Below, in pieces: positions 13,676 to 30,070 of a DNA stretch of 34,473 nt (positions within the stretch are counted from its first letter, which is position 1; each line of letters opens with the position of its first letter). A model generated the notes under the pieces. It did not search any database. It was not told where the DNA came from and worked only from the letters and a program-made list of their open reading frames with translations. This DNA comes from a virus. The stretch is taken from positions 1-34,473 of IMG/VR virus record IMGVR_UViG_3300042298_004611; one strand, 5' to 3'. The position numbers were made by a program, and so were the translations under genes.

Positions 13676-15580
<1,905 letters not shown>

Positions 15581-15584
<4 letters not shown>

Positions 15585-16435: not shown

Positions 16436-17176
16436 CTAAATGTCTGCTTTTCTTACAATATAATAAACACTTTCCCAATTATCACCCGAAAATTCTAGTT
16501 TCATTAATCCTTGGGTATTAACATTAAATGTAGCTGAGGTAGCATCTTTATTATTGTTCAAGATGGTTTTAACCATAGCAGAATTAAATGGGATTTTAGT
16601 TCCATAAGCAACACTATTTAAACTAGCATCTGGGAATTGGTAATCAATTTTATTAGTATGATTTGAGTTATCACCAAATGTAAGAATTAAACAATCTTCA
16701 TCATCTAAATTTTGACCAATACGAACAATCATATTATCGCTTTCAAGTGCGTTGTGTGCCTTAATAATGGCACTAATCTTTTCTTCATCTAAAATACCGG
16801 TAATTTCATAATTATTAGGATCAGTTACACTACCTAAATCATGAATTAAAAGCAAATCTGTAAGTGAAAAATTAAGAGTATAGTTAGAATCTGAAATAAT
16901 GAGTTTAGTGTAAACTGCTTGGGTTTTTTCTAGTTCTAATACTACTTCCCCACTAGTAATCCCTAATAATTTATTTAATTTAGACGTATCATACACGGCA
17001 ATTACGCTATTTTCTAGCGGAAAATTCGTGTGTTTAACGCGTCCAATCATGTCTTTATTGGGTGATTGGAAATCAATATCTAACGCGTTATTTTCGGTAG
17101 TCCATTTTACTGATTCTATTATACCATTTAGGAAATATTTGTTTATAACCGATTGTAGTTCTAACTTATTTACCAT
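16436..17176 (-). CDS. DNA polymerase sliding clamp, T4 gp45-like
   Basis: A 246-residue protein (T4 gp45 is 228). VYDTSKLNKLLGI (61-73) and the C-terminal block GLMKLEFS followed by YYIVRK resemble the gp45 clamp fold, with two similar processivity domains per subunit. The acidic overall charge is usual for clamps. It forms a ring on DNA that tethers the polymerase and, in T4, also serves late transcription. It overlaps the unknown gene upstream by 11 bases. The clamp-loader genes are downstream after the chaperones. Confidence 0.85.
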   Translation of the reverse strand: MVNKLELQSVINKYFLNGIIESVKWTTENNALDIDFQSPNKDMIGRVKHTNFPLENSVIAVYDTSKLNKLLGITSGEVVLELEKTQAVYTKLIISDSNYTLNFSLTDLLLIHDLGSVTDPNNYEITGILDEEKISAIIKAHNALESDNMIVRIGQNLDDEDCLILTFGDNSNHTNKIDYQFPDASLNSVAYGTKIPFNSAMVKTILNNNKDATSATFNVNTQGLMKLEFSGDNWESVYYIVRKADI

Positions 17177-17879
17177 TTGTTTCTAATTTTTCATTAATAA
17201 CAAATAATCCCTTAATTGTTTCTTCTGGGGTTCTAGTAAGATCATAAATGGGGTCTAAAATATTAGGACCAAAAATAATATCTCTAATAATTTCTTTATC
17301 ACTTAAAGTATGAGGAGGCCTTGGATGCCACCAGTTGTAGTACTGAATATCTGATTTGTGTGTCATAATATCTGTTCTATTTGGTTCACTTAAATCTCTA
17401 CAGATATTATATCCTAAATAATTAGATCTTAAAGCAACTTTAGGCATTTCAGTATAAAAATGTAATTCAGGAAAACTATTAGCTAATACATTAGCATAAT
17501 CTGATTCAATTTGAGCTTTACAATTAAATTTTTCTGAGTATTCTTTAATTGTATTACACCATACAAAATGGGTTTCAATAGGTTCACCTGAGAGTAGATA
17601 GAAATTAGTTGTTGTACCATATCTTTCATTAGTTATTTCATCTATTTGGATAACCTCACCATTAATCATTTCATAAACTTGGAATTTAGTTGGTCGATAC
17701 CATAAAGGACCATACCAAGCTACCTCATCATTACTTAAAGAATATGCTCCCGAATATCCCCAAAGATTACCTCTTTTACTCAAAGCTAAGATGTATAAAG
17801 TTTTACCGGGATCGCATTTAACACTAAGGGTAATCCCTTCTTTAGTGCCATTAAAATTAACTATTAACTTCGATTTCAT
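17166..17879 (-). CDS. Uncharacterised 237-residue protein linked to carbamoyltransferase
   Basis: No family recognised. ATG 17879 is chosen; a TTG nine codons further upstream would only add lysine-rich residues over the end of the carbamoyltransferase. The N-terminal third looks beta-rich (LIVNFNGTKEGITLSV, KTLYILALS). The middle is rich in Trp and Tyr (WYGPLWYRP). Later there is YYNWWHPRPPHTLSD. The aromatic content suggests carbohydrate or nucleobase contact, but this is a weak hint. It overlaps the carbamoyltransferase by 23 bases and the clamp by 11, so it is translated between them. It may act on the same substrate as the carbamoyltransferase (inference). Confidence 0.65.
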   Translation of the reverse strand: MKSKLIVNFNGTKEGITLSVKCDPGKTLYILALSKRGNLWGYSGAYSLSNDEVAWYGPLWYRPTKFQVYEMINGEVIQIDEITNERYGTTTNFYLLSGEPIETHFVWCNTIKEYSEKFNCKAQIESDYANVLANSFPELHFYTEMPKVALRSNYLGYNICRDLSEPNRTDIMTHKSDIQYYNWWHPRPPHTLSDKEIIRDIIFGPNILDPIYDLTRTPEETIKGLFVINEKLETNGK

Positions 17880-19527
17880 TTTTTTCTTCTTTATAATATA
17901 TTCCAAATTCGGTAACTAAATAATCTATAACTCCATCAACTAAATGCTTAAATACTTGATCAGGATAAACATTAATAGGTTCCCCATGAGCATTAAATGA
18001 AGTATTTAACAATACAGGAATTCCTGAAAGTTTTTGGTATTCTTTTAATACGTTAAAAAATACAGGATTATTATGTTCGTATACTAATTGGGGTCGGCCT
18101 GTATTATCTACTTTATGGATTACTGCTGGGATTTTTTCTACCCATTCATCTTTACATGTGTAACAAATTGTCATAAACTCAGATGTATGTTCAGATCCGT
18201 TAATATTAAATATATTATGTGCTTCTCCACCTAATACAAAAGGTGCAAATGGCATAATTTCATTTCGTTTTAGACGTTCATTTAACATTTCATGGGTTCC
18301 TGAATCTGTAGCTCTAACCATAATAGATCTAGAACCCAATGCTCGAGGACCAAACTCAAATCGACCATGATATAAACCTAAAACTTTACCTTCATGGAGA
18401 AATTTAGCTATTGTTTTATAATCAAAATCCATTTTAGCTAATCCTTTATGTTGAAAAGCTTCAGCTTCAATCTGATCCTGGTTGTAAGAAAAACCTAAAA
18501 ATGTATTTTCTAATTTATAGGGCTTCCAATCACCTGCATCTAATGAAGCTAAAATAGAGGCTCCCATAGCAATACCTTCATCACCCATTCCAGGTGTAAC
18601 AAAGATATTATCAAAACAACCCATTTCATTTATTACTTGGTTCATCTTAACGTTAGCAAACAAACCACCTGCAAAACAAATATTTTTATAATCAGGATAT
18701 CTTTGGGCTATGTCTGTAAGGTAAGCAACTATATTTTCTTCTAGATGTTGTTGCATAGCATAAGCAACATCAGCTTTACCTTGTTCAGTTTCAAACCATC
18801 CATCTTTTTCTAATTCATTAAAGAACCACTCGTAGATATGATCATGACTATTAGGAGAAAAAGTTAAATATCCTTTATCATAACTAAGTAATGATTTAAA
18901 TCCTCGGTACAAACGATCATTATAATTGCCATGGCCAGCCATACCCATAATTTTACCTTCATCCTTATTACCTACAAAACCAAACTTAGGGCAAGAGTAA
19001 TACCAAATAGTAGCTAATGAATTAGCATTAACGTGCATATCTAACGTATGGACACGATGCATTTTTAATCCATTACCTAATTGTATAGTTCCTAATTCGT
19101 GTTCACCGTTACCACCATCTAGTGTTACTACTAAAGCTTTATCAAAGCCTGATAGATAGTAGGTTGAAGCAGCATGGCAATCGTGGTGAGTATAATACTT
19201 AATTTTAGCGTTAGATTTTTTAAGTCTTTTAAGTATTTTAACTATATCTGCTTTATATTTTTCATTATGGTCTCCTTTATTAAAACCATTATAATAAGAA
19301 TGGATTAAGTTAAAATCTCCAATAGCAACATAATCAGCATCTTCAATAGAAACACCAGTAGCATCTTCAATAGCATTTAAAGAAGTATGAGATGCCCAAC
19401 CCCAAATCCAAGGGGTTTTAGTACGCATCATTTTATCGTCTTCGACTGCATAAATAATTTTACCATCCTCAATATAAACTGCTGAGTGGTTGTGAAATGG
19501 GAATCCTATCCCGTAAATTTTTGCCAT
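17857..19527 (-). CDS. Carbamoyltransferase, NodU/CmcH/TobZ family
   Basis: A 556-residue two-domain enzyme. The N-terminal Kae1-like part has H14 (NHSAV), the metal-binding HHDCHAAS (114-121) and VVTLDGGNGE (133-142). GMGDEGIAMGA follows in the second half of that domain. The C-terminal YrdC-like part carries FGPRALGSRSIM and NTSFNAHGEPI, which bind the carbamoyl-adenylate intermediate. The enzyme uses carbamoyl phosphate and ATP to carbamoylate a hydroxyl group, classically on sugars or antibiotics. In phages the acceptor could be a surface sugar or a modified base. It is placed between the polymerase C-part and the clamp, not in the sugar cassettes. All expected motifs are intact. Confidence 0.92.
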   Translation of the reverse strand: MAKIYGIGFPFHNHSAVYIEDGKIIYAVEDDKMMRTKTPWIWGWASHTSLNAIEDATGVSIEDADYVAIGDFNLIHSYYNGFNKGDHNEKYKADIVKILKRLKKSNAKIKYYTHHDCHAASTYYLSGFDKALVVTLDGGNGEHELGTIQLGNGLKMHRVHTLDMHVNANSLATIWYYSCPKFGFVGNKDEGKIMGMAGHGNYNDRLYRGFKSLLSYDKGYLTFSPNSHDHIYEWFFNELEKDGWFETEQGKADVAYAMQQHLEENIVAYLTDIAQRYPDYKNICFAGGLFANVKMNQVINEMGCFDNIFVTPGMGDEGIAMGASILASLDAGDWKPYKLENTFLGFSYNQDQIEAEAFQHKGLAKMDFDYKTIAKFLHEGKVLGLYHGRFEFGPRALGSRSIMVRATDSGTHEMLNERLKRNEIMPFAPFVLGGEAHNIFNINGSEHTSEFMTICYTCKDEWVEKIPAVIHKVDNTGRPQLVYEHNNPVFFNVLKEYQKLSGIPVLLNTSFNAHGEPINVYPDQVFKHLVDGVIDYLVTEFGIYYKEEKNEIEVNS

Positions 19528-19531
19528 AGTA

Positions 19532-20461
19532 TTAAAAGTTAAAAAATAAATTTCTATAAGGGTTTAGATTTAAGTCCCAACCTAAATCACTATAAAACCC
19601 TTGTAATTTACTTTCTAGTATTGTTTCAAATGATTTGTTTTTATCTGCGTATTCATTTAATAATATACGAATTTTTTCTGGCATATCAAAGTCTAAAAAT
19701 GCAAGTGCTTCTATTTTATAAGGATTATCTTTTAAGTAAATCCATTTAACTTTATCACCTTGAACAATTTTAGAGTGTTGTCTATCTAATTTCCAAAATG
19801 CAAGTAAGTCATTATATTTAATAGCTGCTTTTACAGAAGCGGGGGCACCTTGAGCTACAATAGAAAACATTTCCCCTACTTTAGATTTAGAAGCTATATA
19901 TTTGTCTAAGGTATTTACACGAGTAGGATTACCTAAAATAGCAATGTCGGTATCGGAGGATAAAACTTTAGTTCTAAATGTTTTTAATAATTCATCAATT
20001 TCAGTTTTAGGAGCACCTTTAATTACTCGTTGTAATACATCTTTAAAGAAATCTCCAAATATTTTAGGAAAGTTAGCTTTCATAAACTCTAATCCCTTAA
20101 TATCTAAATCGTCTTTAGATACACCTTCTTTTTTAGTAATCCACTGAGCATAACGGCGAGTAGCTCTAAAATAACCAGAGCGGATAATACACTCTGTTTT
20201 CATTTCAAAACGATGATCCTGGATATTAAATGCTTCTTTAGTTAATGTATTATAATACTCTGTAATTAAGTCTTGGTATTTAAGGGCGATTTCTTCGAGT
20301 TTATTATCTCTTTCTTCCTCTTCCATATCATTAAAGTTAGGATAGAGATGCCTAAGCAAAGGTTCAGCATTATAATAATTAGAGTCTGTATCAACATAAA
20401 CACAATAATTTATATCTTCTTTATTTGCTATAAACCAAGGAGTAGTTTCTAACTGTATCAT
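19532..20461 (-). CDS. DNA polymerase family B, C-terminal part (motif C and thumb)
   Basis: A 309-residue protein that is the missing C-terminal end of the polymerase encoded at 20923-22635. Motif C is YVDTDS (22-27), which supplies two catalytic aspartates. TRRYA (101-105) matches the KKRYA motif, and the rest fits the thumb of T4 gp43. The ATG overlaps the stop of the Smr-like gene (ATGA), so it is translationally coupled. 570 + 309 residues equals a normal T4-type polymerase (about 880-900). Alone it cannot be active; it must assemble with the N-part. No intein residues occur at the break. Confidence 0.92.
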   Translation of the reverse strand: MIQLETTPWFIANKEDINYCVYVDTDSNYYNAEPLLRHLYPNFNDMEEEERDNKLEEIALKYQDLITEYYNTLTKEAFNIQDHRFEMKTECIIRSGYFRATRRYAQWITKKEGVSKDDLDIKGLEFMKANFPKIFGDFFKDVLQRVIKGAPKTEIDELLKTFRTKVLSSDTDIAILGNPTRVNTLDKYIASKSKVGEMFSIVAQGAPASVKAAIKYNDLLAFWKLDRQHSKIVQGDKVKWIYLKDNPYKIEALAFLDFDMPEKIRILLNEYADKNKSFETILESKLQGFYSDLGWDLNLNPYRNLFFNF

Positions 20462-20682
20462 TCTATGATTTGTATTTCACCTGAATTATGAGGGGGAATA
20501 TAATAATCAAATTCATTTTCTTCAAGCCATTCTATTACTATTTTTTTCATAATAGCAGAATTACCTGTAATTATTACTGTATCTTTAGGATTAGTACCTT
20601 CCCAAAAATAAAAATCAATCAATTTGTTTTCTACTTCTGAGTGTTTAACTCCGTGTAGATCAAGCGTTGTTTTCTTCTTCAT
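20458..20682 (-). CDS. Smr-domain-like protein inside the split polymerase gene
   Basis: A 74-residue protein. It starts KKKTTLDLHGVKHSEV with the LDLHG signature of Smr domains at residues 7-11. VIITGNSAIMKKIVIEWL matches the later strand and helix, where most Smr proteins have HGxG; here it is TGNS. Smr domains have nicking or RNA-cleaving activity or bind nucleic acid. ATG 20682 was chosen, since the upstream in-frame codon is TTG. It overlaps the 87-residue gene by 23 bases and the polymerase C-part by 4. Its last codons (G-E-I-Q) repeat the last codons of polymerase part N. Function in the insert is unknown. Confidence 0.7.
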   Translation of the reverse strand: MKKKTTLDLHGVKHSEVENKLIDFYFWEGTNPKDTVIITGNSAIMKKIVIEWLEENEFDYYIPPHNSGEIQIIE

Positions 20683-20923
20683 TATGAAATACTCCTTCAA
20701 TTTCTCCTTTTTGGTTATAAATCTGTTCGGGGACAGTAATATAAAATTTTTCTCCTTTAATACTAAAGCGCCCCCCTTGCTTAAGCATCTTTTTAAAAAA
20801 TAGTACTTCTTTATCAGACCATTTTTCTGATTTATTAATAATAGTATCTTTATCTAAAAGATTTTCTTGAGCAAAGATAGATACTCCTCTACGAATTGAT
20901 TGTTTTGAGATTTTATTTTCCAT
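20660..20923 (-). CDS. Uncharacterised 87-residue protein inside the split polymerase gene
   Basis: No family recognised. It is basic in the first two thirds (SKQSIRRGV, KMLKQGGRFSIKGEKFYI) and acidic at the end (EEENNA). A possible small helix-then-beta fold with a nucleic-acid-binding face fits the composition, but no motif proves it. Its ATG overlaps the TAA of polymerase part N (TAATG), and its 3' end overlaps the Smr-like gene. It is therefore one of two genes that interrupt the polymerase. No homing-endonuclease motif (LAGLIDADG, GIY-YIG, HNH) is visible. Confidence 0.65.
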   Translation of the reverse strand: MENKISKQSIRRGVSIFAQENLLDKDTIINKSEKWSDKEVLFFKKMLKQGGRFSIKGEKFYITVPEQIYNQKGEIEGVFHNEEENNA

Positions 20924-22635
20924 TATAATTGAATTTCTCCTTTTATTACTTTATTCATATGTGTATTAGCAAATAATGCCGATTCTTGGATGATACGTTG
21001 TCCTGTTAAAGTGATACTTTCACTTAAAATTACGTTACCATATCTAAAGCTACCAAGAGCTGTTGCACCATATAAGCTATTTAACAAAATTTTCATTGTA
21101 TGTTGTTTTAGGTGCATTTGTTCGCCTAATTCAGGATTATCTGATTTATAGGCTTCTTTCATTGCGTTTTTATATATAACTCGTTCATCAAACCATTTAG
21201 ATAGAATAGTTTTTAGTACTGAATCATAATCAGTTCTATACATCACCCCATTAGCGGAAACTGATAGTTTTTCGGTTTCGATTAGTTTAATAATATCTTT
21301 AACTTTAATTTGAGCTAATTTACGTTTTGAATTTTGAATATTTAAAATTCTATCCTGATCCATTCGTTTTAAATCATTCAAAGCATATCTACAGTTGAAA
21401 ATTTCTTTACCTTCAACTACTATTTTTTCATCAGGCATTACAATTCGGCCTACTAAAGTTTCCTTACCAATATTTAAAGACATAATAATTGAAGGATATA
21501 GTGAAGTTAAATCCTCATCAAACATATATTTAAAGATACCGGCTGTAGGGCAAAACAAATAACCACCTGCATAATTCTTTTTAGTAATAGGATTTCTATC
21601 GCGTGCCGGGGGGACAATACCTTTAGATAAAAGATAAGCTGAAATAGCACCATCATGAATCATACTATTTTTATAGACGTCACTATAGTTAATTTTACCT
21701 TTATGTGCTAGGTTTTTAGTAAGAGATAAATATTGAAATTTTTCATCTAATGCTTTTAAGATTTCAACGTCTCGAAAGTTATATTGAATGAATGTTTGAA
21801 TGTCTTCTTCAAATAATCGATCTAAAGAACCATTGTATTCAATCTTATTTAGATTACAATATTTTTCTCCTAAAGCATCTAATTTAAATGATGGTTCATC
21901 TTTAAAACTAAACTTCTTATGAAGTTTCATATAATCTAAAGATTCAACCCCGGCAATACGGAGCCAACCATCATTATTCCAACTAGATTCATCTTTAATT
22001 TTACCAATTGGAGATAAACGATAAGCTTCATTTTTACCTAATACATTATTAATTCTGTAAAAAAGATAAGGAATATCAAAATAATCACTATTATATCCTA
22101 CTAAAATATCAGGTTGAATTTCACCTAATCTATCTAACCATCTACGAAGTAATTCATCTTCAGTACGACAAGGGATAATCTCGCGATTTTTTGCTTTAGT
22201 GTGTTTTAGCTGATTTTTAGTGTCTAAAATTAAGATAGCCCATTCATCAGTTTGTTTATCCCACCAAGCAATTGAAGTAACAGGTTTTGGAGCATTACGA
22301 ATATATTCTTCAGTAAGTGCTCCCCCCATTTCAATCTCGATATCAAAAAATATCTCGCGGTGTGTTTTAGAAGGTTCGTCATTATTACTATACAAATCAA
22401 TTAAGAAACGTTGATAAGGACGAATATCGTGAAAATGGAGTTTAGGATTTTCTTTATCCCAACCTATTACTTTACGTAGAGTTTCTCCTCGTAGCCCTAT
22501 AAAGTCACCTTTTTCGGTTTCTTCAAAAGCAGGGTAAGACCAATTTAGAGTTTTGTAACCATTATCAGCCCAAAGGTGAACTCGATAATTGTTATTCCCT
22601 TCAGAAGGTTCTACGTAACATGACTTGTAAATCAT
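20923..22635 (-). CDS. DNA polymerase family B, N-terminal part (exonuclease, motifs A and B)
   Basis: A 570-residue protein holding most of a T4 gp43-type polymerase. The 3'-5' exonuclease has Exo I D98/E100 (FFDIEIE), Exo II in GYNSDYFD (180-187) and Exo III Y285xxxD289. Polymerase motif A is DLTSLYPSII (375-384) and motif B is KILLNSLYG (515-523). It then stops at residue 570, before motif C. The remaining part is at 19532-20461. Its start overlaps the MazG-like gene (ATGA). Both active sites have all residues, so the split enzyme is likely functional when joined non-covalently. Confidence 0.94.
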   Translation of the reverse strand: MIYKSCYVEPSEGNNNYRVHLWADNGYKTLNWSYPAFEETEKGDFIGLRGETLRKVIGWDKENPKLHFHDIRPYQRFLIDLYSNNDEPSKTHREIFFDIEIEMGGALTEEYIRNAPKPVTSIAWWDKQTDEWAILILDTKNQLKHTKAKNREIIPCRTEDELLRRWLDRLGEIQPDILVGYNSDYFDIPYLFYRINNVLGKNEAYRLSPIGKIKDESSWNNDGWLRIAGVESLDYMKLHKKFSFKDEPSFKLDALGEKYCNLNKIEYNGSLDRLFEEDIQTFIQYNFRDVEILKALDEKFQYLSLTKNLAHKGKINYSDVYKNSMIHDGAISAYLLSKGIVPPARDRNPITKKNYAGGYLFCPTAGIFKYMFDEDLTSLYPSIIMSLNIGKETLVGRIVMPDEKIVVEGKEIFNCRYALNDLKRMDQDRILNIQNSKRKLAQIKVKDIIKLIETEKLSVSANGVMYRTDYDSVLKTILSKWFDERVIYKNAMKEAYKSDNPELGEQMHLKQHTMKILLNSLYGATALGSFRYGNVILSESITLTGQRIIQESALFANTHMNKVIKGEIQL

Positions 22636-23249
22636 TCAAAAAACTTCTTTAGATTGGGTCTAAAATAGTTAATATTTTTCATTACTTTACGGTCTCGAGT
22701 ACGATATACAACGTACTTGTCAGCAACTTGTTCATAGTGACATGCCTCGCCTTGTTCTTGGGAACGTAAGTCAACAGTCTTTTGTGCCTCTTCTTGTGTA
22801 GAGCAAGCTTTTGAAAGATTTGATGCTTGTACTTCCATATAAGCGGGCCAAATTTTATCCTTAAGACCATGAAGCATAGCACCGTTCCCAAGGGATACAT
22901 AAGCAATGTCACACAATGCATCCAAAACTTCCACGATGTCTTGTTTTTCGCAAGCTTGTTTATACTCCTCAAGTTCTTCCAGAACGAAGTTGTAAACAAA
23001 ATCCCATTCATGTTTAGCTGGTATAACTGGTTCATAGTTGTTAGGTTTATTCATTAAGCTATTGAATTCTTCAACCTCGCTGACGAATGGTACATATTGT
23101 GAGTTAAATAAATTTGTAATTCTTTCTGCAGTAGTTTCAGCCCAATCCATTTCAGGGTTGCGTCCTGCTTCATCTCGGTCTGAGAATGAGCGAAGTTTAC
23201 CTAAACTATTAATTAGTTCAATAGTGATTAAATCTTTAAATTGAGACAT
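22632..23249 (-). CDS. MazG-like nucleotide pyrophosphohydrolase
   Basis: A 205-residue protein with a central all-alpha NTP-PPase signature: FVLEELEEYKQACEKQD followed by EVLDALCDIAYVSLG. This is the EExxE ... ExxD pattern that binds magnesium. The family removes pyrophosphate from non-standard or surplus (d)NTPs. The C-terminal third (EQVADKYVVYRTRDRKV) is outside the core and may bind substrate. ATG 23249 was chosen because the codon nine residues earlier is TTG. It overlaps folE by 14 bases and the polymerase by 4. Next to FolE and the queuosine-type genes it may tune GTP or modified-nucleotide pools. Confidence 0.8.
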   Translation of the reverse strand: MSQFKDLITIELINSLGKLRSFSDRDEAGRNPEMDWAETTAERITNLFNSQYVPFVSEVEEFNSLMNKPNNYEPVIPAKHEWDFVYNFVLEELEEYKQACEKQDIVEVLDALCDIAYVSLGNGAMLHGLKDKIWPAYMEVQASNLSKACSTQEEAQKTVDLRSQEQGEACHYEQVADKYVVYRTRDRKVMKNINYFRPNLKKFFE

Positions 23250-23940
23250 GTCCGTTATTGATTTTAAGTGAGTCAAAAAATTCTTTACGTGCTTGATTAT
23301 TGTTGTCCATAAACACTCCAGAGGCTTTAGTAGTTACCATTGCTGCTCCTTGGTGTTTTACACCTCGGCAAGATACGCAAGAGTGAGTAGCAACCACAGT
23401 TACAATTACACCACGATTATCTTCGCAAACCTTATCTACCGCTTGGTGAATGGCTGTTGTAAGTTGCTCCTGAATGGCTCCTCTACGTCCAAAATGTTCT
23501 ACAATGCGGTTTAGTTTACTTAATCCAATAACTCGTCCGTTTTCACCTGCAATATATCCTATATGAACTACACCATTAATAGTTTGGTGATGGTGCGAAC
23601 ACATAGAGGTAAGAGGAATGTTACGTTCGATAACAATTCCATCATAACCGTCTGAGGGGAATGAAGTGATTTCAGTAAATTTTTCGTAGCGACCTTTCCA
23701 CAGATCATAAACGTATGCTTTAGCTACGCGACGAGGTGTTTCCATTGAATTGGGATCGTTTCTCCAATCGCATTTTAGGGCATCAAGAAACTTACCAAAA
23801 TGTTCGGTTGCCTCTTCTACCATCTGTTGTTTTTGCTCATCCGAGAGTGGGAAATCTCCTGCAACACCATTGGCAAAGCCGGGTTGAACACACTCTATAT
23901 TGTCGTACTTCTTACGACGTTTGTTTTCAATATTTTCCAT
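23236..23940 (-). CDS. folE: GTP cyclohydrolase I
   Basis: A 234-residue enzyme, first step from GTP to dihydroneopterin triphosphate and here to preQ0. Zinc ligands are C114 and H117 in TSMCSHHHQT and C188 in THSCVSCRG. VIGLSKLNRIVEHF and QEQLT are the standard core motifs. ATG 23940 is chosen over an upstream TTG because it places the start 15 bases after a promoter-like -7 element, and the extra residues look unconserved. The insert before the core (WRNDPNSMETPRRVAKAY) matches the usual TPxRVA motif. It is the first gene of a unit leading into MazG and the polymerase. Confidence 0.95.
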   Translation of the reverse strand: MENIENKRRKKYDNIECVQPGFANGVAGDFPLSDEQKQQMVEEATEHFGKFLDALKCDWRNDPNSMETPRRVAKAYVYDLWKGRYEKFTEITSFPSDGYDGIVIERNIPLTSMCSHHHQTINGVVHIGYIAGENGRVIGLSKLNRIVEHFGRRGAIQEQLTTAIHQAVDKVCEDNRGVIVTVVATHSCVSCRGVKHQGAAMVTTKASGVFMDNNNQARKEFFDSLKINNGHVSI

Positions 23941-23955
23941 ATAACTTATTTTATA

Positions 23956-23986
23956 TAAATGTACGAAATAATCTTTACAGAGCAAA
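23956..23986 (-). promoter_or_regulatory. Bacteroidota-type promoter, TTTG-N19-TACATTTA
   Basis: Minus strand TTTG (23986-23983), 19-base spacer, TACATTTA (23963-23956), then 15 bases to ATG 23940 of folE. The TTTCGTAyATTTA part is shared with the elements at 15.9 and 31.95 kb. The -33 part lies inside the end of the phosphoribosyltransferase gene. Confidence 0.55.
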
Positions 23987-27362: not shown

Positions 27363-27542
27363 TTATTTTAATTCTTTTACTTCGTAAATATTACCTGAAG
27401 TGGTATTAGCCTGAAATAGTTCAGCTAGCTTAGTAGCGTAATCTAAAGAATCAAATTCCATAGAAATACCCTCGTTATCATTTACTAAAATAGTACGAGG
27501 AGTGCCCTGTATGATAGTGTGTTTTAGAATTATGTAAGGCAT
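27363..27542 (-). CDS. Small uncharacterised protein (59 residues)
   Basis: An open frame found in the gap between queE and the sulfotransferase gene. ATG 27542 overlaps the queE stop (TAATG) and the TAA at 27365-27363 is one base from the next gene. It starts MPYIILKHTI and has MEFDSLDYATKLAELF in the middle, suggesting a beta hairpin plus a helix. Tight coupling at both ends argues for a real gene. No family recognised. Confidence 0.6.
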   Translation of the reverse strand: MPYIILKHTIIQGTPRTILVNDNEGISMEFDSLDYATKLAELFQANTTSGNIYEVKELK

Positions 27543-28324
27543 TATACTTCTCTTTTAGTATCGAAAGCAATGATATGTTCACGGCCTGTGAAGTTGTACA
27601 TATTTTCGGTACACCAATTAATTACCATAGGATAAACACGGATTAGTTCTTCACGATTATCACCCGGGGGCATAATCCAAATTTTATCTTTTGGTACCTC
27701 TAGCTCATCCATAAACGCCCTAATTTCAGTCCAGACATCGGGACGTTCAACCGGATTAACAACTACCTTCATATGATAATCTGAGTGGTAAGCCATTGAT
27801 TGCTTAATAGAATCTTTGTTTAAACGTAAGCGATTATGAGTGTCAATAAACTTTTGATCTACAACATTTCCTAAGGGTGTAGTAGCTCCCAATACAGGTA
27901 CGCTATTACTAAATTTAGGACTGAAGCTAATAAGGCCAAGAGGGTAATCAGTTTCGACGAAATGACTTCCTTCAGTCTCAATCGTAATGATGATTTGTCT
28001 CTCATTTGCAAAATGGGTTAGTTCATTTACAATAGTAGGGTGCATAGTGGGAGAACCTCCCGTTAGCATCATCTCCTTAATTTCAGGATTAGCATCGTAA
28101 ATATTAATAATATCTTGGAAGCTATATTTACCTTTCTCAGGGTGAATACTTGTATACCATGAATCACACCAACCACCTTCACCAAAGTAACAGCGGTGAG
28201 TACAACCCGTAGTACGGACAGCAACAGTGGGACGACCTGCACGGCTACCCTCTGATTGGATACAAGTGTATAATTCTACAATAGGTAGAATTTTATTATA
28301 GTCTTCTATTCTTTTTATTGCCAT
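27542..28324 (-). CDS. queE: 7-carboxy-7-deazaguanine synthase (QueE), radical SAM
   Basis: A 260-residue enzyme. The Fe-S cysteines are C41, C45 and C53 (TGCTHRC, then GGWC), so the C-x3-C-x7-C spacing is longer than the usual radical-SAM C-x3-C-x2-C. QueE members are known to vary here. EMMLTGGSPTMH (84-95) is the SAM-binding GGE-like region and ITIETEGSHF follows. ELYTCIQSEGSRAGRP is the QueE-specific start. It rearranges carboxy-tetrahydropterin to CDG. It lies two bases after queD and completes the pathway with FolE, QueD and QueC. Confidence 0.93.
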   Translation of the reverse strand: MAIKRIEDYNKILPIVELYTCIQSEGSRAGRPTVAVRTTGCTHRCYFGEGGWCDSWYTSIHPEKGKYSFQDIINIYDANPEIKEMMLTGGSPTMHPTIVNELTHFANERQIIITIETEGSHFVETDYPLGLISFSPKFSNSVPVLGATTPLGNVVDQKFIDTHNRLRLNKDSIKQSMAYHSDYHMKVVVNPVERPDVWTEIRAFMDELEVPKDKIWIMPPGDNREELIRVYPMVINWCTENMYNFTGREHIIAFDTKREV

Positions 28325-28326
28325 GA

Positions 28327-28791
28327 TTATCCTTTATAAAATGCTGTGTTTTTTTCATTTTCGCGGAATTCAACTTGAATTACCTTTACGCGTCCTTCTG
28401 TTTCAATTTGAACAAAATCGTTTAGTTTATTATAAAAATATTCGGCAAAACGTTCTGCCCCAACAGCTGGGAGGATTCGGAGTTGGATAACTCCAAGTTT
28501 TTCTAATTCTTTAAATTTTTCTAGTTCGGGGTCATCCTCTGTTATAATAGTAGTATGGTCTAGCATGTAATCCATCCATTCTTTAGGATTTCTACCATCA
28601 ATGGTATTTTTAGCACGTTTCATGCCTCCAAAATCCCAAACCCAATTGCGTTCGTCAAGTTCACCTTCAAACCATACTCTAAGGCTTACCCCGTAACCAT
28701 GTAGGAAACGGCAGTGGGTTCCTTCAGCTTTCCATTGACGAAATACTGTTGAATATCCATCAAATACTTTTGTTGATCTAAAACTTCCCAT
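28327..28791 (-). CDS. queD: 6-carboxy-tetrahydropterin synthase (QueD), variant metal site
   Basis: A 154-residue QueD/PTPS-fold enzyme. The catalytic cysteine matches C27 in THCRFLHGYG, and D78/H79 in LDHTTI matches the catalytic LDH motif. GAERFAEY (PTSE-like) is the substrate glutamate region. Compared with canonical QueD, the second histidine of HGH is Y33 and the first zinc histidine (AAH motif) is not seen; H26 and H31 remain. It may bind metal differently. It converts dihydroneopterin triphosphate to carboxy-tetrahydropterin. It is two bases from queE. Confidence 0.88.
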   Translation of the reverse strand: MGSFRSTKVFDGYSTVFRQWKAEGTHCRFLHGYGVSLRVWFEGELDERNWVWDFGGMKRAKNTIDGRNPKEWMDYMLDHTTIITEDDPELEKFKELEKLGVIQLRILPAVGAERFAEYFYNKLNDFVQIETEGRVKVIQVEFRENEKNTAFYKG

Positions 28792-29047: not shown

Positions 29048-29274
29048 TATTTACGTATAAATTGGTAATTAATAAAAAGGAACATAAGAGCAGCAGCCGT
29101 TAACCAACTATTAATTGATGCTTCAAAAAGTGAGCTAAATAAAAAGCTCCAGTGTCCATACTTTAAAAATAAAGTTTCAATTTTTTTCATTTTTTTGTTT
29201 TTTTGTTCTTCTTTCCAGTGTTTTTTGTTTGTGCCATTAAAGATATCTCTATATAAATTATCTCTATCGCTCAT
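29047..29274 (-). CDS. Small uncharacterised protein with C-terminal membrane helix
   Basis: A 75-residue protein. The first 40 residues are strongly charged (KKHWKEEQKNKKMKK), and residues about 55-72 (NSWLTAAALMFLFINYQF) form one likely membrane helix. The Lys-rich segment would lie in the cytoplasm. It overlaps queC by 11 bases and thioredoxin by 1, so it is translated with them. No family recognised. Confidence 0.55.
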   Translation of the reverse strand: MSDRDNLYRDIFNGTNKKHWKEEQKNKKMKKIETLFLKYGHWSFLFSSLFEASINSWLTAAALMFLFINYQFIRK

Positions 29275-30070
29275 GACTTTCTAGTACTTTAGTTACTTCT
29301 GTTACTACATGTTCCCAACTTACTTCACCAGTTTCATCTTCGTATTGAACAGGATCTGGACGATCTAAAAGGATAAAAGCTTCAATACGTTCAACACTTG
29401 AGGCCGATTTATAATCAGAATTACCTGAAGGGTAGGGTTTGTAAGAGGTATTAGTACGTTTGTAAACTTCGTTGAAGTTAACCCCTAATTCTTTACATAA
29501 TTTCTCTCCATCTTGGAGAATTATAAATTTATCACCTTCAAGATATGGTGTAAAGTAACCTACTTTTTCAGAACCCCAGTTACCCATTCTAAAGGCATGA
29601 TCATCTGCATCTCGGAATTCTTGACGACAATCAGGATAAATTGCGTGGTCACCTGCGTGAATACCCATCGCTATATCGCACATTTCACCTGTTTTATCAG
29701 CAATTGAAAGTGCAACTGCTTGAGCAATTGAAGAGAAAATTTTATTACGATTAGGAACAACTGTTGCTTTCATATTTTCTTCAGCATAATGTCCTTCAGG
29801 TACATCATCTCCACCTGTTACTAGTGCTGAATTAAGAAGGTCAGCTAATCCATTTAATTGGATTTGTTGGTAACTTAATTTACTGGAATCCTCAGTAGCG
29901 TTAACCCATAAATAAGCTATTAATGATTCAGCTCGTTCAAGCTCTACTCTATGTTTTTGACCATAATCAAATGAAAGTGCTGTTACTGTATCGTACTCTT
30001 TTAAGCAACGAAGCAACAATGTTGAGGAATCCATTCCCCCGGATAATGAAACTACTACGTGTTTTGCCAT
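29264..30070 (-). CDS. queC: 7-cyano-7-deazaguanine synthase (QueC), lacking the zinc cysteines
   Basis: A 268-residue PP-loop enzyme. SGGMDSS (10-16) is the ATP pyrophosphate loop and SFDYGQKHRVEL (33-44) the QueC signature. DCRQEFRDAD and YFTPYLEG also match. The C-terminal zinc site, normally TCY plus CGxCxxC, is replaced by NTSYKPYPSG and SDYKSASSVER, so all four cysteines are gone. VERIEAFILL still aligns with the usual VxRxxAF end. It converts CDG to preQ0 with ATP and ammonia. It starts just after an AT-rich 14-base sequence repeated at the window end. Confidence 0.9.
   Translation of the reverse strand: MAKHVVVSLSGGMDSSTLLLRCLKEYDTVTALSFDYGQKHRVELERAESLIAYLWVNATEDSSKLSYQQIQLNGLADLLNSALVTGGDDVPEGHYAEENMKATVVPNRNKIFSSIAQAVALSIADKTGEMCDIAMGIHAGDHAIYPDCRQEFRDADDHAFRMGNWGSEKVGYFTPYLEGDKFIILQDGEKLCKELGVNFNEVYKRTNTSYKPYPSGNSDYKSASSVERIEAFILLDRPDPVQYEDETGEVSWEHVVTEVTKVLESHER

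What the first reader, a model, noticed from the sequence alone, without database searches (positions are those of the whole stretch)
19532..22635. DNA polymerase split between motifs B and C by a two-gene insert
Seen: polymerase part N (20923-22635) has exonuclease sites and motifs A and B, then stops. Part C (19532-20461) begins just before YVDTDS. Between them lie an 87-residue basic protein and an Smr-like protein, joined by TAATG at the left end and ATGA at the right, so all four genes are coupled. Known: some T4-like phages split gp43 with homing endonucleases. Here no homing-endonuclease motif is visible, and an Smr-type domain takes that place. Either this is a new kind of intervening element or the two small proteins take part in replication.
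Basis: partly seen in the sequence, partly recalled or inferred. Interest (0 to 1): 0.85.

Follow-up and report, generated by a model that had tools for sequence, protein, structure and literature searches.

The report
Split phage DNA polymerase, swappable insert
In a large group of uncultured marine phages the gene for the copying enzyme (DNA polymerase) has been cut in two just before its catalytic aspartates, and the gap has become a slot into which other genes are repeatedly inserted and lost; the two small genes seen here are exchangeable passengers of that slot.

Summary
A T4-type family B DNA polymerase is encoded as two ORFs (570 + 309 aa), broken between motifs B and C, with an 87-aa gene and an Smr-like gene between them, all overlapping or coupled. 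It is not an assembly error: 153 other IMG/VR contigs carry the same break, with the catalytic motifs kept and dN/dS of about 0.03-0.13 in both halves. The interpretation needs changing. The small genes are not tied to the split. In 32 of 153 contigs the halves abut (mostly a 4-nt ATGA overlap), in others one or both genes are missing, and p87 also lies elsewhere, even in a phage with an undivided polymerase. The same slot in other relatives holds metabolic and glycosyltransferase-like genes, and in some a GIY-YIG or HNH/EndoVII endonuclease; one such insertion is recent and has converted about 100 nt of the neighbouring motif-C exon. So this is the known split-gp43/homing-endonuclease theme (Aeromonas phages 25 and 44RR) at a different break point, fixed across a large clade and used as a gene-exchange slot. 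Ten undivided relatives nest beside split ones, so the break either happened twice at one spot or was once re-fused. An active two-subunit polymerase is inferred, not shown.

The parts
20923..22635 (-). polN: N-terminal part of a gp43-like family B DNA polymerase (exonuclease motifs, polymerase motifs A and B)
   Evidence: ORF; PF00136 8.4e-20, PF03104 7.3e-16; phrog_262 8.6e-112; RB69 gp43 1.1e-46
20660..20923 (-). p87: 87-aa protein of unknown function, most frequent occupant of the slot
   Evidence: ORF; relatives in over 100 phage contigs; no Pfam, PHROG or fold match
20458..20682 (-). Smr-like 74-aa protein with invariant DLHG
   Evidence: ORF; PF01713 in 11 of 16 family members, best 2.2e-7; alignment A4
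19532..20461 (-). polC: C-terminal part of the polymerase (motif C YVDTDS, rest of palm, thumb, C-terminal LFFNF tail)
   Evidence: ORF; phrog_262 1.7e-44; profile alignment to RB69 gp43 through YGDTDS
16436..17176 (-). sliding clamp (context): the usual next gene after polC in relatives, here displaced by two genes including a carbamoyltransferase
   Evidence: tblastn with the clamp of L031, 53% identity, 3e-82; profile hits PDB sliding clamp/PCNA weakly, E 0.016 and 0.053
22632..23276 (-). MazG-like nucleotide pyrophosphohydrolase, usual upstream neighbour of polN (context)
   Evidence: PF01503 2.6e-8; same upstream family in 73 of 96 relatives

Best explanation
The polymerase is made as two separately translated subunits that fold together without a covalent link (inferred). 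The break lies in a surface loop between the helix after motif B and the beta strand of motif C, so each half keeps whole structural elements. polN supplies the exonuclease, palm part A and fingers; polC supplies the motif-C aspartates, thumb and clamp-binding tail. The break is old and shared by a large marine phage clade. The new gene boundary inside the polymerase then became a slot where homing endonucleases and other genes land, are exchanged and are lost, while selection keeps both halves intact and in one operon (shown by comparison). p87 and the Smr-like gene are the present occupants and have their own, unknown, functions; neither is needed for the split or for the polymerase (shown by relatives lacking them). 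That endonuclease homing drives the exchange is indicated by one recent case and inferred for the rest.
For: Same break in 153 contigs plus the window, motifs ExoI-III, A and B intact in 154/154 and motif C in 153/154 (one truncated start). dN/dS 0.03-0.13 in both halves. AlphaFold model of an undivided relative (pLDDT 82; top PDB match RB69 gp43, E 5e-39, TM 0.75): junction 575/576 lies between helix 540-569 and strand 593-596, with pLDDT below 50 at 581-589. Slot contents change at least 29 times on the polymerase tree, against 7 and 8 for the flanking junctions; by single neighbour, 14 and 23 against 7 and 8. Empty slots with ATGA overlap. L020/L023: 91-100% identical except at the 5' end of the compared region, but for an HNH/EndoVII-like gene and about 95 nt of replaced polC start. 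GIY-YIG genes in L065/L066/L082 and L080, with an altered polN end in L065. Precedent: 43A/43B of Aeromonas phage 25 co-purify and are active (PMC2988022).
Against: No biochemistry: association and activity of these two halves are untested. Most slots hold no endonuclease, so homing as the general driver is inferred. Loci were found by searching with polN, p87, Smr or an undivided polymerase, so occupancy frequencies are biased. Flanking-junction calls can miss inserts shorter than 400 nt. Slot-state counts depend on a tree with some weak forks.
Confidence: 0.82

Rival explanations
1. p87 (and perhaps the Smr-like protein) is a functional partner of the split polymerase, for example a small subunit bridging or regulating the halves, and is kept in the slot for that reason.
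For: p87 is by far the commonest occupant, usually directly after polN; it is under purifying selection (dN/dS 0.06-0.32); it is translationally coupled to its neighbours here.
Against: Absent from the slot in at least 32 split contigs and not found on most of those contigs tested, up to 110 kb long; present 4-7 kb away in a phage with an almost empty slot (L264) and in one with an undivided polymerase (L263), there next to a membrane-protein gene; occurs in other phages far from any polymerase hit.
Confidence: 0.12
2. The two halves are joined after translation or at RNA level (split intein, trans-splicing, intron), so the split is only at gene level.
For: Inteins sit at the motif-B and motif-C sites of the related huge-phage polymerase LR756508.
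Against: polN and polC of the window end and begin in ordinary polymerase sequence with no intein or Hint match; no Rfam match including group I introns; relatives with a 4-nt overlap leave no room for any such element.
Confidence: 0.03
3. On history: the split arose twice at the same point, and the undivided clade keeps the ancestral state (against one old split followed by one re-fusion). This concerns the origin, not the present function.
For: Undivided clade of ten is sister to split L185-L201 with support 100/99; a single clade of split rows is rejected (AU p 0.009) with the junction columns left out. Parsimony alone does not separate the two histories. LR756508 shows that a second, separate split in the same interval can happen.
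Against: Both split groups share the same break, a homologous polC leader (E..PWxIC) and p87 in the slot, and the undivided linker is longer than in Mel-JY01 and T4-like polymerases and aligns with that leader, which favours split then re-fusion.
Confidence: 0.35
4. Decayed polymerase or assembly artefact.
For: None found.
Against: Same arrangement in 153 independent contigs, intact motifs, strong purifying selection.
Confidence: 0.01

Closest known systems
Split gene 43 (43A/43B) of Aeromonas phages 25, 44RR2.8t and CC2 (Petrov, Ratnayaka and Karam 2010, as reviewed in PMC2988022)
   Same: gp43 PolB split into adjacent genes, keeping motifs; GIY-YIG endonuclease between the halves in phage 25, no gene between them in CC2; halves of phage 25 reported to co-purify and be active.
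   Different: Their break is in the fingers, upstream of motif B (query residue about 497); here it is downstream of motif B in the loop before motif C. Here the slot carries ordinary and metabolic genes in many members and the break is shared by a large clade.
Homing-endonuclease insertions into essential phage genes (mobE in nrdA of Aeh1, mobA in T4 gene 60; GIY-YIG seg family; EndoVII-type F-CphI)
   Same: GIY-YIG and EndoVII/HNH-type genes occur in this slot, in one case with conversion of the flanking exon at an active-site motif.
   Different: The window itself and most members have no endonuclease there; non-endonuclease cargo dominates.
Archaeal split PolB of Methanothermobacter (Kelman et al. 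1999, cited in PMC2643942)
   Same: Two-gene family B polymerase that works as a complex (from memory).
   Different: Cellular; the exact break was not compared here.
Split DNA polymerases of OM43 phages MEP401/402 (PMC10580990)
   Different: A separate, Zobellviridae-related phage group; no relation shown, and its polymerase family was not checked here.

Membership tests
T4 gp43-like family B DNA polymerase | Exonuclease motifs I-III and polymerase motifs A, B, C; sequence and fold match to RB69 gp43 | tested here: met
   fold of an undivided relative
T4 gp43-like family B DNA polymerase | Polymerase activity of the assembled enzyme | not testable with these tools
   Needs protein work
43A/43B split gp43 of Aeromonas phages | Two adjacent ORFs together covering gp43 | tested here: met
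43A/43B split gp43 of Aeromonas phages | Break point in the fingers upstream of motif B | tested here: not met
   Here downstream of motif B; Aeromonas 43A ends before motif B
Homing-endonuclease-split gene | Endonuclease ORF between the halves in the window | tested here: not met
   p87 and Smr-like only
Homing-endonuclease-split gene | Endonuclease ORF in the same slot in relatives, with conversion of flanking sequence | tested here: met
   L023 against L020; L065, L080
Smr domain (PF01713) | Profile match above the curated cut-off | tested here: inconclusive
   Window protein 16.6 against cut-off 25.7 bits; 11 of 16 family members match, best 2.2e-7
Smr domain (PF01713) | DLHG motif and a second GxG-type motif | tested here: inconclusive
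   DLHG invariant; second motif is G(N/K/D)S instead; the GxG feature is from memory
Intein or group I intron | Splicing domain or ribozyme at the junction | tested here: not met

The most novel reading that the evidence does not exclude
The break inside the polymerase is a long-lived gene-docking site: an essential enzyme stays split because the internal boundary, kept identical by selection and serviced by homing endonucleases, lets phages of this clade trade cargo genes by recombination through the conserved polymerase flanks; at least once the gene was closed again into one polypeptide.
Probability: 0.4. Interest if true: 0.65.

Novelty: new variant of a known kind. Interest (0 to 1): 0.52.

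Why it matters
Split replicative polymerases in phages are known from a few cases attributed to homing endonucleases or untranslated inserts. Here is a clade with all stages side by side: undivided, split with nothing between, split with an endonuclease and fresh exon conversion, and split with other genes as cargo. That makes the route from parasite insertion to stable two-subunit enzyme to cargo slot testable by comparison, and gives a natural two-piece PolB broken next to the catalytic aspartates.

Tried and rejected
p87 function: Pfam, PHROGs, PDB fold and BFVD gave nothing; its model (pLDDT 80, helix-helix-hairpin) could suggest a winged helix, not supported by Foldseek. Smr profile against PDB: no Smr hit. 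A first alignment for structure prediction (A1) misplaced polC starts and was discarded. A single-origin clade of split rows excluding the undivided ones was my first reading and was overturned by wider sampling. Introns, inteins and joining by splicing were considered and rejected for the window. Host assignment: MAG bins point mostly to Flavobacteriales but also to a Pelagibacter bin; not settled. One p87 tree mislabels the window's own copy (L175) as lying far from the polymerase because of its strand; its counts are used only loosely.

Full report
OBSERVATION. On the minus strand the window encodes polN (22635-20923, 570 aa), p87 (20923-20660), an Smr-like protein (20682-20458) and polC (20461-19532, 309 aa). 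Junctions are TAATG, a 23-nt overlap and ATGA, so the four genes form one coupled block. polN and polC match the N- and C-terminal parts of one family, gp43-type PolB; the polC profile aligns through RB69 gp43's YGDTDS.

REAL, NOT AN ARTEFACT. 153 further IMG/VR contigs, from searches with polN, p87, Smr and an undivided relative, have the break at the same place: polN ends shortly after HMNKV..., polC starts about 23 residues before motif C with a leader like MxxLExTPWxIC. Motifs ExoI-III, A and B are present in 154/154 and motif C in 153/154, the exception having a truncated start. dN/dS is 0.03-0.13 for both halves. Both halves are therefore genes under selection for function.

WHERE THE BREAK LIES. 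The undivided relative L071 was modelled from an alignment with both kinds of halves (A3): pLDDT 82, top PDB match RB69 gp43. The point equivalent to the break (575/576) falls between helix 540-569 and the motif-C strand 593-596, in a stretch whose confidence drops below 50 (581-589). The Aeromonas phage 25 and CC2 splits end in the fingers before motif B, so this is a different site.

THE SLOT. Content between the halves: nothing (32 of 153 contigs at 20 nt or less, mostly a 4-nt ATGA overlap), p87 alone, Smr alone, p87+Smr, or these with DUF2452- or DUF6165-like proteins, a cupin, RmlC-like, KdsA/DAHP-synthase-like, transaldolase, cysteine-synthase-like, glycosyltransferase, epimerase or methyltransferase genes, and endonucleases (GIY-YIG in L065/L066/L082 and L080; EndoVII/HNH-like in L023). 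Some of these names rest on my reading of the sequence; Pfam-tested are GIY-YIG, DAHP_synth_1, TAL_FSA, DUF6165 and DUF2452. On the 99-row tree the slot needs at least 29 changes of state; the upstream junction (MazG or a membrane protein) needs 7 and the downstream one (sliding clamp in 88 of 99) needs 8. Counting only the immediate neighbour, the slot's two sides need 14 and 23. Caveats: the loci were partly chosen with p87, and short inserts at the flanking junctions may be missed.

DISPENSABILITY. L012 and L013 are about 95% identical through polN, polC and downstream, yet L012 lacks Smr. L046 and L053 (about 90%) differ by 1.26 kb of cargo against none. p87 was not found on the 100-110 kb contigs of L053 and L054 (which may be incomplete genomes), lies 4.7 kb from the polymerase in L264, and about 6.8 kb from an undivided polymerase in L263, there beside a membrane-protein gene. 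In other phages p87 sits beside the same membrane-protein family with no polymerase hit near. So p87 is a gene with its own role that often, but not always, sits here.

HOMING. L020 and L023 are mostly 91-100% identical across polN, p87, Smr, polC and about 800 nt downstream, except for an inserted EndoVII/HNH-like gene directly after Smr and the first ~95 nt of polC, which fall to 57% and resemble another lineage's allele (L049). This is the footprint expected of homing with co-conversion, at codons for motif C. EndoVII-type homing endonucleases are known (F-CphI, PMC6083498). In L065 a GIY-YIG gene follows polN, whose last codons are altered.

HISTORY. First tree: all split rows one clade, undivided outside. 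With more relatives, ten undivided polymerases (including two from MAG contigs) form a clade sister to split L185-L201 with 100/99 support, and a single clade of split rows is rejected (AU p 0.009), junction columns left out. Either the gene split twice at one point, or split once and was re-fused in the undivided clade. The shared leader, shared slot occupant and the long linker of the undivided form favour re-fusion; this is not settled. The huge phage LR756508, sister to the undivided Mel-JY01 polymerase, has a split in the same interval with about 3 kb of cargo and two inteins.

MECHANISM. Shown: break position, conservation, exchange of contents, one recent endonuclease insertion. Inferred: two polypeptides associating into an RB69-like enzyme (precedent: phage 25 43A/43B, PMC2988022); the polC tail (LFFNF and similar) acting as the clamp-binding tail by analogy with gp43 (established knowledge); homing as the general entry route.

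VERDICT. Confirmed observation; a new variant of a known kind (split gp43). The p87/Smr pair is not a new kind of intervening element.

Noticed in passing
L174:2364-10288 (LR756508.1, 484-kb uncultured phage): Polymerase split in the same interval with about 3 kb between halves, plus an apparent intein at motif B (polN) and another at motif C (polC); spliced polC would read YCVYTDTDS.
   Followed up: partly
window 13676-15584: Phage-encoded GroEL (phrog_5725 1e-155) and GroES (phrog_3188) genes.
   Followed up: no
window 23236-23985, 27542-28324, 28327-28791, 29264-30070: GTP cyclohydrolase I, QueE-, QueD- and QueC-like genes: a complete-looking preQ0 (7-deazaguanine) set, suggesting DNA modification.
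   Followed up: no
window 16436-19527: A carbamoyltransferase-like gene and a second ORF are inserted between polC and the sliding clamp, which are adjacent in most relatives.
   Followed up: partly
L083:3353-5040: polN appears in two overlapping frames (residues 1-309 and 315-570), a possible frameshift or further break; not checked.
   Followed up: no
L006:885-2729, L093, L222, L237, L249: Some polN proteins carry unrelated C-terminal extensions beyond the break.
   Followed up: no
L112, L115, L134, L135, L142: p87 relatives beside a conserved membrane-protein gene in other marine phages, a possible ancestral location.
   Followed up: partly
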